A DNA stretch of 64,000 bases from Chromatiales bacterium. Its GTDB lineage: Bacteria > Pseudomonadota > Gammaproteobacteria > Steroidobacterales > GCA-2729495. Shown piece by piece: positions 1 to 48,287 of the stretch. The stretch covers positions 392,335-456,334 of the forward strand of contig CP070671.1 of NCBI GenBank assembly GCA_020351875.1, given 5' to 3'. The position numbers were made by a program, and so were the translations under genes. Below the pieces are notes generated by a model, which saw only the letters and a program-made list of their open reading frames with translations, did not search any database and was not told the origin of the DNA. How positions within the stretch are numbered: the stretch's first letter is position 1; every line of letters starts with the position of its first letter.

Positions 1-228
1 TTGGTCTTGCTCCGGGTGGGGTTTGCCGTGCCGCGGCGTGTTACCACCCGCGCGGTGCGCTCTTACCGCACCATTTCACCCTTACCGGCCGGGGCCGGCG
101 GTATATTTTCTGTGGCACTTTCCGTGGGCTCGCGCCCCCCAGGCGTTACCTGGCACCCTGTCACGCTGGAGCCCGGACTTTCCTCCCGGCACGCGGCCGG
201 GCGGCTGCCTGGCCGACTCCGGCGTGTA
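1..228 (-). ncRNA. rnpB: RNase P RNA, 5' part (runs off left edge)
   Basis: This is the catalytic RNA of RNase P, which trims 5' leaders from pre-tRNAs. Read on the minus strand it carries the conserved bacterial type A core: the block GGAAAGTCCGGGCTCC (169-184), the segment complementary to ccaggcgttacctggc (138-153), the GGGTGAAA-like stretch and the GTGCGGTAAGAGCGCACC block (about 55-72), then the GGCAAACCCCACCCGGAGCAAG segment near position 1. The 5' end is placed near 228 by matching the start of the E. coli RNA and may be off by several bases. The 3' third, including the second half of the P4 pseudoknot, lies outside the window. Its promoter must overlap the 3' end of rsmI; a weak TTGCCG-16-CTAAGG pair is visible there. 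Confidence 0.93.
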
Positions 229-44685: not shown

Positions 44686-47600
44686 TCAAAACTTCCCGTA
44701 GTAGCCTTCTTTCAGCGCATCGAACAGGTTTGCGGCGGTATGTACTTCCCCGTCGTACTCCACCTCCTGGTCGCCGCGCGCCTCGATCTCGGTGCCATCT
44801 TCCAGGACGAAGGTGTAGGTCGTGTTCTTCAGGTCTTTTTCCTTGACCAGCACGCCCTGGAAGGCCTCTGGATTGAAGCGGAAGGTCGTGCAACCCTTCA
44901 GCCCCTGCTCGTGCGCGTACAAGTAGATGTCCTTGAACTCCTCGTACGGAAATTCCGTCGGCACATTCGCGGTCTTGGAGATCGATGAATCCACCCATTT
45001 CTGGGCCGCCGCCTGGATGTTCACGTGTTCGGTGGGCGTGATGCTGTCCGCCGTCACGAAATAGTCGGGCAGCTGTTCGCCAGGCTTGTTCGAATCCGGC
45101 AGCGCGCGCGGGTTGACCAGCTCGCGATAGGCCAGCATTTCGAACGAGAACACGTCCACCTTTTCCTTGGTCTTCCGGCCCTCGCGAATCACGTTGCGGA
45201 AGTAATGATGCGCGAAGCTCGGCTCGATGCCGTTGCTGGCGTTGTTGGCCAGGGACAGCGAAATGGTGCCGGTGGGCGCGATGGAACTGTGGTGCGTAAA
45301 GCGCGCGCCGGTGCGCTCCAGTTCCTTGACCAGCTCCGGTGCCACCTCCCTCATGCGTTGCATGTAGCGGCTGTAGCGCGCGTGCAGCACGCGGCCCGGC
45401 ACCTTGTCGCCCACCTGCCAGCCATCGGCAGCCATCTCCGGGCGCCGCCGCAGCATTTCCGGGGTCACCCGGAATTCTTCGAGCATGATCGGCGCCGGGC
45501 CCTTTTCGCGGGCGAGTTCCAGGCCCGTTTCCCAGCCCGCCACGGCCAGCTCGCGGGCCACGGTTTCCGTGAACTCCACGGACTCCGAAGCGCCGTATTT
45601 CATGCGCAGCATCGCGACGGTGGAACCCAGGCCCAGGAAACCCATGCCGTGACGGCGCTTGCGGAAAATCTCGTGGCGCTGGCCATCCAGCGGCAGACCG
45701 TTCACTTCCACCACATTATCGAGCATCCGCGTGAACACGTTCACGACCTTGCGGAAATCTTCCCAGTCGAAACGCGCGTTGTCGGTGAACGGGTCGACGA
45801 CGAACTTGGTCAGGTTCACGGAACCCAGCAGGCAGGAGCCGTACGGCGGCAGGGGCTGCTCGCCACAGTTGTGGGCCCAGATACCGTTGGCGTCAAACGC
45901 GTTGATGCCCGGCACCTGGCAGTCGTAAACCGCTTCTGAGCCGTCCGCTGCCACCGCCTTGACGCGGGCCACGAAACGTTCCGTGCCCTGGGCGACGGCC
46001 GGGTGGGCCAAGGCATCTGCCAACCGCTCACTGCGCACTGTATCCGTGAACCCGATCAGCTCGGCGAACTGCGCCAGGTTGCTGCCGGAAATCCACAGGC
46101 ACGCCCCGGTGACCGCCGATGACCGCTGACCGCTGCGCCGGGCCACGATGCCGAACCGCAGCAGCATGCGCTGAATGCCCGGCAACGCATCCTCACGGAG
46201 ATCCGCATACCGGATCGCCGGGCCGGCAGCGCCTTCCGCCACGAGTTCGCCCCGTTGGTCGAAGGCGGCCCTGAGAAAACCGCGGTAAAAACCGCTGGAC
46301 GCCCGTTCCAGGCCCGCCGTCACCGCGCCGGGATCAGCCGCCAGGTCCAGGGCCGCGGCCACGCGACCCAGCCCGGGGATCACCAGCTGATGCCGGCCGG
46401 TGTCGGCCACCGGCTGCCAGCCGAGTTCGTCACCGTTGACGACCAGGGCCCGGGCCGCTTCTTCGGCCGTGCTCATCAACAGGTCCACGCCGGCCGCCAG
46501 AGGTGCCGCGGACCCGTTGGCCACCACGGCGGTACCACCGAGCTGAATGCTGGCGTCCGTGGCCGACACCTGGCCGGCACCGGTGTGCAACAGACCGAGC
46601 AGGTAGCCCTCTTCGCCACCGTAAGCACCCGGCCAGTGTGCGCGCCCGCGATGATCGTGCAGCATCACGCGATCGCCGGGGCACAGCTGCCCCGCCGTGC
46701 ACCAGTCCGTCTCCGTGACGTCGGCGTCGAAGCGCACCACGCGGCGCAGGCGATGATCCGCAGTCAGCCGCAGGCTGAAGCCGCCAGCGGTTTCCAGTCG
46801 CACCACGGGCTTGGTGGCGGTCTGGAAGAACCCGTCCGGGCCCGACTCCCAGGCCTCGCCGTCCAGCAGCGCCGTGAAGGGCCGGCCGACGAGTTCTGCC
46901 ACCTGCCGCGGCCCGTCCGCTGTCTGTACCCAGGTATCTGCTGTCACGCACGGGTTGGTCGCCCGAATGTTTTCGCAAAACCAGTTGTTGTTCATTTCGT
47001 TCACGCGGTCGACGAGAACGAAACCAGGCTCCGCGAAGTCATAGGTGGAAGCCATGATCATGTCCCACAAGCGCCGGGCCGGCAGCTTGCGGAAGATCTT
47101 GCAGGCCACCTGGCCGTGCTCGTTGGTCACGTAGCCGTTTGCCGGCCAGTCCCGCCACAGCACCTGCTCGGGATCGTCCAGGTCGATACCGCTGTTGTCG
47201 TATTCCCGCTGGTCGATCGGAAAGGCCAGCGCCCACTCGCCGTTGGCACGCACGGCGTTCACGAAGTCGTCCGTAATCAGCAGCGACAGGTTGAACTGCC
47301 GCAACCGGCCGTCTTCACGCTTGGCGCGGATGAAGTCGAGAACGTCCGGGTGGCCCACGTCGAAGGTGCCCATCTGGGCACCGCGGCGCCCGCCCGCCGA
47401 CGACACGGTGAAACACATCTTGTCGTAGATATCCATGAACGACAGCGGGCCGGATGTGTACGCACCGGCGCCGCTGACGTACGCCCCCTTCGGCCGCAGC
47501 GTAGAGAATTCGTAGCCGATACCGCAGCCGGCCTTCAGGGTCAGCCCGGCTTCGTGCACCTTGTCCAGGATGTCGTGCATGGAATCACCGATGATTCCGG

Positions 47601-47913
47601 ACACGGTGCAGTTGATCGTGGAGGTGGCCGGCTTGTGGTGCCGCGCACCCGCGTTCGATACGATTCGCCCCGCCGGCACCGCGCCGCTGCGCAGCGCCCA
47701 CAGGAAAGACTCGTACCACCGCTCGCGGTCCGGCTCCGCCTCGACATCGGCCAGTGCGCGGGCGACGCGTTTGTAGGTGTCGTCCATGGTTTCATCCACT
47801 ACCTCGCCGACCTTCGACTTGAGCCGGTACTTGGTGTCCCAGATATCCACGGAGGCTTCCTGGAAGACGATGCCCGAAACCTTGACCTGACCAACCTGCG
47901 CTGCGCTTTTCAT
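44686..47913 (-). CDS. nrdJ: Adenosylcobalamin-dependent (class II) ribonucleotide reductase, with intein
   Basis: NrdJ reduces ribonucleotides to deoxyribonucleotides using coenzyme B12 to generate a thiyl radical. The 1075-aa precursor holds 714 aa of reductase interrupted by a 361-aa intein. Reductase landmarks: GRIVSNAGARHHKPATSTINCTVSG (first redox Cys), AGCGIGYEFSTLRPKGAYVSGAGAYTSG, and NLSLLITDDF. The radical motif NPCGE is rebuilt only after splicing (NP before the intein, CGE after), with the partner Cys in YGSCLLGSVNL. THHSSIAPTGTISLSLANNASNGIEPSF lies further on. ATG 47913 is preferred; an in-frame start at 47958 would add 15 residues. It is followed by the TSCPD partner gene. Confidence 0.96.
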   Translation of the reverse strand: MKSAAQVGQVKVSGIVFQEASVDIWDTKYRLKSKVGEVVDETMDDTYKRVARALADVEAEPDRERWYESFLWALRSGAVPAGRIVSNAGARHHKPATSTINCTVSGIIGDSMHDILDKVHEAGLTLKAGCGIGYEFSTLRPKGAYVSGAGAYTSGPLSFMDIYDKMCFTVSSAGGRRGAQMGTFDVGHPDVLDFIRAKREDGRLRQFNLSLLITDDFVNAVRANGEWALAFPIDQREYDNSGIDLDDPEQVLWRDWPANGYVTNEHGQVACKIFRKLPARRLWDMIMASTYDFAEPGFVLVDRVNEMNNNWFCENIRATNPCVTADTWVQTADGPRQVAELVGRPFTALLDGEAWESGPDGFFQTATKPVVRLETAGGFSLRLTADHRLRRVVRFDADVTETDWCTAGQLCPGDRVMLHDHRGRAHWPGAYGGEEGYLLGLLHTGAGQVSATDASIQLGGTAVVANGSAAPLAAGVDLLMSTAEEAARALVVNGDELGWQPVADTGRHQLVIPGLGRVAAALDLAADPGAVTAGLERASSGFYRGFLRAAFDQRGELVAEGAAGPAIRYADLREDALPGIQRMLLRFGIVARRSGQRSSAVTGACLWISGSNLAQFAELIGFTDTVRSERLADALAHPAVAQGTERFVARVKAVAADGSEAVYDCQVPGINAFDANGIWAHNCGEQPLPPYGSCLLGSVNLTKFVVDPFTDNARFDWEDFRKVVNVFTRMLDNVVEVNGLPLDGQRHEIFRKRRHGMGFLGLGSTVAMLRMKYGASESVEFTETVARELAVAGWETGLELAREKGPAPIMLEEFRVTPEMLRRRPEMAADGWQVGDKVPGRVLHARYSRYMQRMREVAPELVKELERTGARFTHHSSIAPTGTISLSLANNASNGIEPSFAHHYFRNVIREGRKTKEKVDVFSFEMLAYRELVNPRALPDSNKPGEQLPDYFVTADSITPTEHVNIQAAAQKWVDSSISKTANVPTEFPYEEFKDIYLYAHEQGLKGCTTFRFNPEAFQGVLVKEKDLKNTTYTFVLEDGTEIEARGDQEVEYDGEVHTAANLFDALKEGYYGKF
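45868..46950 (-). other. Intein in NrdJ (361 aa) with degenerate homing endonuclease
   Basis: This is a protein intron translated in frame within nrdJ and expected to splice itself out. The first residue is Cys (CVTADTWVQTADG, block A). Block B is SLRLTADHRL with the conserved Thr-x-x-His. The C-terminal block reads VYDCQVPGINAFDANGIWAHN, with penultimate His, terminal Asn and a following Cys as the +1 residue. A LAGLIDADG-type endonuclease region lies between, but its two helices read LLGLLHTGAG (about 46570-46605) and FLRAAFDQRG (about 46246-46290), both lacking the catalytic Asp. Splicing should work while homing should not. The insertion is exactly between NP and CGE of the radical-cysteine motif. 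Confidence 0.94.
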
Positions 47914-48094
47914 TGCGACGAAACAACCCCGTATCTGAAGGCGGCCCCGGCCTGCCAAGCCGTGAGTCGCTGTCTTTTTGCCCGGTTCACCCCTGACCCG
48001 TGACCCCTTTTTTCAACGGACAGTCGTCCCCTGCAGCCGCGAGCGACACCCTCGGTCCTCGTGGCCGATACGACGATCCTGAAGAAAACCGCCG

Positions 48095-48110
48095 GCACAA
48101 GATATTGTGC
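48095..48110 (-). promoter_or_regulatory. NrdR box 1, overlapping the nrdJ transcription start region
   Basis: The 16-mer gcacaagatattgtgc matches the NrdR consensus acaCwAtATaTwGtgt at 12 of 16 positions, counting w as a match, including all upper-case ones. It is the core of an 18-bp interrupted palindrome (GGCACAA, four bases, TTGTGCC). It begins about 12 bases downstream of the -10 hexamer, so a bound repressor would cover the start region. NrdR is the ATP/dATP-sensing repressor of ribonucleotide reductase genes in most bacteria. Confidence 0.82.
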
Positions 48111-48121
48111 CGACGCCTGCA

Positions 48122-48150
48122 AGATTAGGACTCCGGGAATTTTCTGTCAA
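48122..48150 (-). promoter_or_regulatory. Sigma-70 promoter of nrdJ
   Basis: On the minus strand TTGACA (48145-48150) is followed after exactly 17 bases by TAATCT (48122-48127). The -35 is perfect and the -10 matches TATAAT at four of six positions. The expected start site is near 48115, giving a leader of about 200 bases before the nrdJ ATG. Box 1 for NrdR lies immediately downstream. Confidence 0.82.
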
Positions 48151-48271
48151 GGGAAAATTGTCTTTCAGCCTTATCGCTTAAATGGTTTAAAAACAATTAC
48201 TTATTGGCTTTTCAGAAAATACTCCGCAGAACAACTTGTGCTGACTGTAGCGTGGTCGCCTATTGGGCGGA

Positions 48272-48287
48272 CCACAACATCTTGTGT
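48272..48287 (-). promoter_or_regulatory. NrdR-like box 2
   Basis: ccacaacatcttgtgt matches the NrdR consensus at the conserved C-w-A, AT and T-w-G-t-g-t positions. It is 177 bp upstream of box 1, farther than the usual 15-16 bp spacing of paired boxes. It may act through a second, unrecognised promoter or by looping. Confidence 0.55.

What the first reader, a model, noticed from the sequence alone, without database searches (positions are those of the whole stretch)
48095..48150. Near-consensus nrdJ promoter with an NrdR palindrome on the transcription start
TTGACA-17-TAATCT is followed about 12 bp later by an 18-bp interrupted palindrome whose core fits the NrdR consensus. Geometry and match together make direct NrdR repression of this class II reductase likely. 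The predicted leader of about 200 bases has no recognised riboswitch and may carry further control.
Basis: partly seen in the sequence, partly recalled or inferred. Interest (0 to 1): 0.62.

Follow-up and report, generated by a model that had tools for sequence, protein, structure and literature searches.

The report
NrdR–IHF DNA loop controlling nrdJ
The switch that turns down a DNA-building-block enzyme in this bacterium, and in many of its gammaproteobacterial relatives, seems to fold its own control DNA into a loop: two repressor sites about 17 helical turns apart with a DNA-bending-protein site halfway between, a layout missing from the published work on this repressor that I could read.

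Summary
TTGACA-17-TAATCT and a perfect NrdR box (48096-48109) lie upstream of nrdJ on the minus strand, and the genome encodes NrdR. These are the only two sites within one mismatch in the 3.49-Mb genome. Published NrdR pairs sit 31-32 or 41-42 bp apart centre to centre, and NrdR binds a single box poorly.

The long pair is conserved: 88 of 104 distinct relatives with a proximal box, and 51 of 369 class-wide Gammaproteobacteria (exact search, zero control hits). All 47 class-wide pairs with nrdJ in view lie upstream of nrdJ. Spacings cluster near 156, 167, 178 and 188 bp (period about 11 bp). Midway lies an IHF consensus (exact in 17 of 88 loops, 0.5 expected), and the IHF-to-box arms differ by whole helical turns. 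The -35 accompanies the proximal box in 86 of 86 loci, the distal box in none.

Best explanation: dATP/ATP-loaded NrdR bridges both boxes across an IHF-bent loop that holds the nrdJ promoter. No binding or expression data exist. Phasing is strong under a smooth null, weaker after phylogenetic pairing (p = 0.03-0.34).

The parts
44686..47913 (-). nrdJ, class II (B12-dependent) ribonucleotide reductase, interrupted by an in-frame intein
   Evidence: PF02867, PF00317; TIGR02504; ATG placed by the reading frame
48093..48112 (-). Proximal NrdR box, 20-bp palindrome (16-mer 48095-48110, 14-mer core 48096-48109), just downstream of the predicted start site
   Evidence: 0 mismatches; one of two such sites in the genome; conserved in relatives
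48122..48127 (-). -10 element TAATCT
   Evidence: sequence; TAATCT is the commonest hexamer at this place, 36 of 88 loci
48145..48150 (-). -35 element TTGACA
   Evidence: sequence; TTGAC at this offset in 86 of 86 loci
48191..48203 (-). IHF-like site TAAGTAATTGTTT (consensus YAANNNNTTGATW, one mismatch), followed by a T-rich tract, near the middle of the loop
   Evidence: 94 bp from the proximal box start and 83 bp from the distal box start; enrichment and fixed position in relatives
48273..48286 (-). Distal NrdR box CACAAGATGTTGTG, 177 bp upstream of the proximal box
   Evidence: 0 mismatches; the only other such site in the genome; conserved
47914..48115 (-). Predicted untranslated leader, about 200 nt, no recognised RNA element
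   Evidence: no Rfam match up to E = 1; start site predicted, not mapped

Best explanation
The nrdJ promoter lies inside a regulatory DNA loop. When dATP is plentiful, an ATP/dATP-loaded NrdR tetramer holds a box just downstream of the start site with one Zn-ribbon pair and a box 177 bp upstream with the other. IHF, bound midway, makes the sharp bend that brings the two arms together. This replaces the short linker between the adjacent boxes of known NrdR operators. RNA polymerase is then excluded or trapped, and nrdJ is repressed. When dATP falls, NrdR changes oligomer, releases the DNA, and nrdJ is transcribed. Shown here: boxes, promoter, IHF-like site, conservation, phasing under a smooth null, and the genes for NrdR, IHF-alpha and IHF-beta. 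Inferred: binding, loop formation, repression, and the nucleotide signal (the last from studied NrdRs).
For: Two perfect boxes, the only such sites in the genome. Long pair in 88 of 104 distinct relatives with a proximal box, mode 179 bp; two canonical 32-bp pairs. Class-wide exact scan: 51 of 369 genomes, zero reversed-pattern hits. A phylum-level sample: only the query genome of 398, though how many of those carry nrdJ was not counted. All 47 class-wide pairs with nrdJ in view lie upstream of nrdJ. Relaxed search of 79 usable further nrdJ upstream regions: about 27 more long pairs, four with a 31-32 bp pair, none in shuffles. Spacing periodicity about 11 bp, R 0.57-0.60, p < 0.0003 against a smooth null. 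IHF consensus exact in 17 of 88 loops (0.5 expected) and within one mismatch in 65 (11.9 expected), one orientation only, mostly -93 to -96; class-wide 34 of 47 (7.9 expected). Arms quantised: IHF-proximal about 84 or 94, distal-IHF about 72, 83 or 92. NrdR, IHF-alpha and IHF-beta over NCBIfam cut-offs. No -35 at the distal box at the same offset on either strand, 0 of 86. Known NrdR tetramers have two DNA sites about 80 A apart and need two boxes in helical phase (PMC9110341, PMC12051234).
Against: No NrdR or IHF binding, start-site or expression data for any of these promoters. Tree-paired tests of phasing are weaker: total spacing p = 0.08-0.16 with 19 changes; arms p = 0.03 at 10.5 bp but 0.34 at 11 bp, with 25 changes and some doubtful IHF assignments. 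The smooth-null p values do not fully correct for shared ancestry. About a quarter of loops lack an IHF match within one mismatch, and the window's own site has one mismatch. Some gammaproteobacterial nrdJ promoters show one good box only.
Confidence: 0.78

Rival explanations
1. The distal box does not pair with the proximal one but regulates the divergent htrA/deg protease gene (48502 onward); the two boxes act separately.
For: htrA lies divergently upstream in most loci (83 of 103 with enough upstream sequence).
Against: Distal box to htrA start varies from 101 to 2542 bp (sd 369) while box to box has sd 4.4 bp. Long spacing persists in L065, L068, L108 and L109 with no htrA upstream. No -35 at the expected offset from the distal box on either strand. 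NrdR binds single boxes poorly (PMC12051234).
Confidence: 0.07
2. NrdR represses from the proximal box (with weak help nearby), and IHF independently activates nrdJ from about -84; the distal box is a storage or secondary site and no functional loop forms.
For: IHF can activate promoters from such positions (general knowledge). The IHF-proximal distance is tightly set.
Against: The distal arm varies by whole turns as well (about 72, 83, 92), which a simple activator model does not explain. The distal box is as well conserved as a functional operator across the class.
Confidence: 0.1
3. Ordinary NrdR control through an adjacent, degenerate second box that the consensus search misses; the long spacing is a by-product of shared ancestry.
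For: A few class members do have pairs at 31-33 bp (L102, L113, G118, G247).
Against: No partner at 31-42 bp at up to one mismatch in any long-spaced order-level locus. In the window no site at up to three mismatches lies at those distances. Conserved spacing between loci whose loops are only about half identical even within the genus.
Confidence: 0.05

Closest known systems
Canonical NrdR operators (Streptomyces coelicolor nrdRJ, E. coli nrdHIEF; PMC9110341, PMC12176259, PMC12051234)
   Same: Same box consensus, two boxes per promoter, a box next to the start site, helical-phase dependence, same regulator family.
   Different: Known boxes are 15-16 or 25-26 bp apart edge to edge. Here they are about 163 bp apart with the promoter between them and an IHF-like site near the midpoint. 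The 2025 survey's search pattern allowed spacers of at most 50 nt, so it could not see this arrangement.
Pseudomonas aeruginosa nrdJ promoter (PMC4409342)
   Same: Class II nrdJ in a gammaproteobacterium, two predicted NrdR boxes; mutating box 2 mimics the nrdR mutant.
   Different: Box 1 overlaps the -10 there; the exact spacing is in a figure not held here. No IHF site or loop appears in the passages read.
GalR-HU repressosome of the E. coli gal operon (general knowledge, not tested here)
   Same: Two distant operators flanking the promoter, bridged by a repressor with help from a DNA-bending protein of the HU/IHF family.
   Different: Different repressor family; HU rather than a sequence-specific IHF site; loop about 113 bp; sugar rather than nucleotide signal.
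LacI repression loops (PMC5081198)
   Same: Repression by bridging two operators, with an oscillation in repression as operator spacing changes.
   Different: Repressor and signal differ; no dedicated IHF site in the loop (general knowledge).

Membership tests
NrdR regulon member (NrdR-box promoter) | 16-bp palindromic NrdR box upstream of an RNR gene | tested here: met
   Two perfect boxes upstream of nrdJ; only sites within one mismatch in the genome
NrdR regulon member (NrdR-box promoter) | nrdR gene in the genome | tested here: met
   TIGR00244 212.8 bits vs cut-off 124.65; glyA-nrdR-ribD neighbourhood judged from the translations
NrdR regulon member (NrdR-box promoter) | NrdR binds the boxes in a dATP/ATP-dependent way | not testable with these tools
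   Needs protein and DNA
Canonical paired NrdR operator | Two boxes 3 or 4 helical turns apart (31-32 or 41-42 bp centre to centre) | tested here: not met
   Spacing 177 bp; no partner at 31-42 bp of either box at up to three mismatches in the window
Canonical paired NrdR operator | Integer number of helical turns between boxes | tested here: inconclusive
   Class-wide clusters near 156, 167, 178, 188; p < 0.0003 against a smooth null, but p = 0.08-0.16 in phylogenetic pairs
IHF-assisted repression loop | IHF site between the operators | tested here: met
   Strong enrichment at a fixed position and in one orientation; the window site has one mismatch; binding not tested
IHF-assisted repression loop | IHF genes in the genome | tested here: met
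   IHF-alpha (TIGR00987) and IHF-beta (TIGR00988) above cut-offs
IHF-assisted repression loop | Repressor bridges both sites in vitro or in vivo | not testable with these tools
   Needs looping assays

The most novel reading that the evidence does not exclude
NrdR, so far known only from operators with adjacent boxes, works in many Gammaproteobacteria as a long-range DNA-looping repressor with IHF as an obligate architectural partner, so that nrdJ control responds to IHF level and DNA supercoiling as well as to dATP.
Probability: 0.6. Interest if true: 0.8.

Novelty: new variant of a known kind. Interest (0 to 1): 0.72.

Why it matters
NrdR is a near-universal bacterial regulator of DNA precursor supply and a proposed antibiotic target. 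All structures and surveys I could read assume adjacent boxes, so a class-wide looped operator would have been missed by design. If true, it shows that the same tetramer can bridge sites 15-18 turns apart, ties dNTP supply to IHF and supercoiling, and gives natural series of arm lengths for testing how loops depend on helical phase. It also explains how nrdJ promoters that seem to have one NrdR box can still satisfy the two-box requirement.

Tried and rejected
Leader riboswitch: no Rfam match at gathering threshold or up to E = 1; the leader varies in length. Distal box as an htrA operator: rejected on distance variance, loci without htrA, and lack of promoter elements. Canonical partner 31-42 bp from either box: absent. 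The weak site at 48227-48240 as a third operator: 46 bp (about 4.4 turns) from the distal box and not listed in genus relatives. NrdR box at the second class II RNR gene (L002): none seen in the sequence before it. Phylogenetic-pairs test of total spacing: inconclusive. An extra order-level scan around G258 reached 20 genomes of one family, with spacings of 168, 175 and 189-190. No held paper links NrdR with looping or IHF in substance, judging by the listings. The founding NrdR-box paper (Rodionov and Gelfand 2005) is not held, so an early mention of long spacings cannot be excluded.

Full report
What is there. On the minus strand, TTGACA (48150-48145), 17 bp and TAATCT (48127-48122) precede an NrdR box, GCACAATATCTTGTGC (48110-48095), upstream of nrdJ (ATG at 47913). 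nrdJ is a class II, B12-dependent reductase (TIGR02504, PF02867). The genome encodes NrdR over its NCBIfam cut-off, has no class I small subunit by PF00268, and has a second short class II reductase without an evident box.

What was missed. Published NrdR operators have boxes 15-16 or 25-26 bp apart, and NrdR from studied species needs two boxes and prefers an integer number of turns (PMC12051234). The tetramer has two DNA sites about 80 A apart and kinks each box by about 90 degrees (PMC9110341). The published survey allowed spacers of at most 50 nt.

Conservation. In nrdJ upstream regions of GTDB relatives and of the window's own genus, family and order, 104 of 109 distinct loci have a proximal box. 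Of these, 88 have a distal box 156-202 bp upstream, mode 179; two have a partner at 32 bp. In an even sample of 369 Gammaproteobacteria, 51 genomes carry two exact boxes 134-194 bp apart and none matches the reversed control. All 47 pairs with nrdJ in view lie upstream of nrdJ. NrdJ itself occurs in 187 of the 369. Of 80 further nrdJ upstream regions fetched (one truncated), about 27 show a long pair at up to two total mismatches, four show a 31-32 bp pair, and shuffles give none. A phylum-level sample of 398 gives only the query genome. It includes many genomes outside these lineages and nrdJ carriage was not counted there, so it serves mainly as a chance control.

Anatomy of the loop. TTGAC of the -35 lies at the same offset from the proximal box in 86 of 86 loci and never at that offset from the distal box on either strand. 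Midway is an IHF consensus in one orientation: exact in 17 of 88 loops (0.5 expected), within one mismatch in 65 (11.9 expected), mostly at -93 to -96 from the proximal box. It is followed by an AT-rich tract, as in known IHF sites (the comparison is from general knowledge). The window's copy is TAAGTAATTGTTT, 48191-48203, one mismatch. IHF-alpha and IHF-beta are encoded. Within the genus the loop is only 52% identical, so the elements stand out from their background.

Helical phasing. Class-wide spacings cluster near 156, 167, 178 and 188, with single cases near 135 and 145. The best period is about 10.9-11.05 bp, R 0.53-0.60 depending on the set, with none of 4000 smooth-null draws as extreme. 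The IHF site divides the loop into arms that vary separately: about 84 or 94 bp to the proximal box and about 72, 83 or 92 bp from the distal box. So 156 = 84+72, 166 = 94+72 or 84+82, 179 = 95+84 and 186 = 94+92. Correcting for relatedness by independent tip pairs weakens this: total spacing p = 0.08-0.16 (19 changes), arms p = 0.03 at 10.5 bp and 0.34 at 11 bp (25 changes). I regard phasing as likely but not settled.

Mechanism. The simplest reading is a repression loop: NrdR bridges the two boxes, IHF supplies the bend, and the promoter lies inside. This keeps the known two-box requirement of NrdR and replaces the short linker by an IHF-bent one. Binding, looping, repression and the dATP signal are inferred. 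The rivals (distal box for htrA; IHF as activator only; hidden adjacent boxes) fit less well. Box-to-box spacing has an sd of 4.4 bp against 369 bp for distal box to htrA, and long pairs persist without htrA in four loci.

The leader. One short leader segment is largely conserved in the genus and was left as a side observation.

Novelty. No held paper links NrdR with looping, and the few that mention both NrdR and IHF do so in other contexts, judging by their listings. Rodionov and Gelfand 2005 could not be read. I class it as a new variant of a known kind: NrdR operators and repressor loops are each known, and the combination is not in what I could read.

Noticed in passing
window 45868-46950 (-): In-frame intein in nrdJ (361 aa; weak LAGLIDADG_3 and intein-splicing matches). 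Longer nrdJ frames (about 1080-1160 aa) in several relatives suggest inteins there too.
   Followed up: partly
L002 1420-3213 (-): A second, short class II reductase (597 aa, TIGR02504) elsewhere in the genome, with no NrdR box seen upstream.
   Followed up: partly
window 48049-48071 (-): Short leader segment AUCGGYCACG..ACCGAGGG, largely conserved in five genus members and able to form a small stem; no Rfam match.
   Followed up: partly
window 1-220 (-): Bacterial RNase P RNA (class A), cut off by the window edge.
   Followed up: no
L102, L112, L113: A few related nrdJ promoters have ordinary NrdR pairs about 32-33 bp apart (one box weaker in L112) and no long partner, so both operator types occur within the class.
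   Followed up: partly
window 48227-48240: Weak NrdR-like site (two mismatches) 46 bp from the distal box; not listed in genus relatives.
   Followed up: yes
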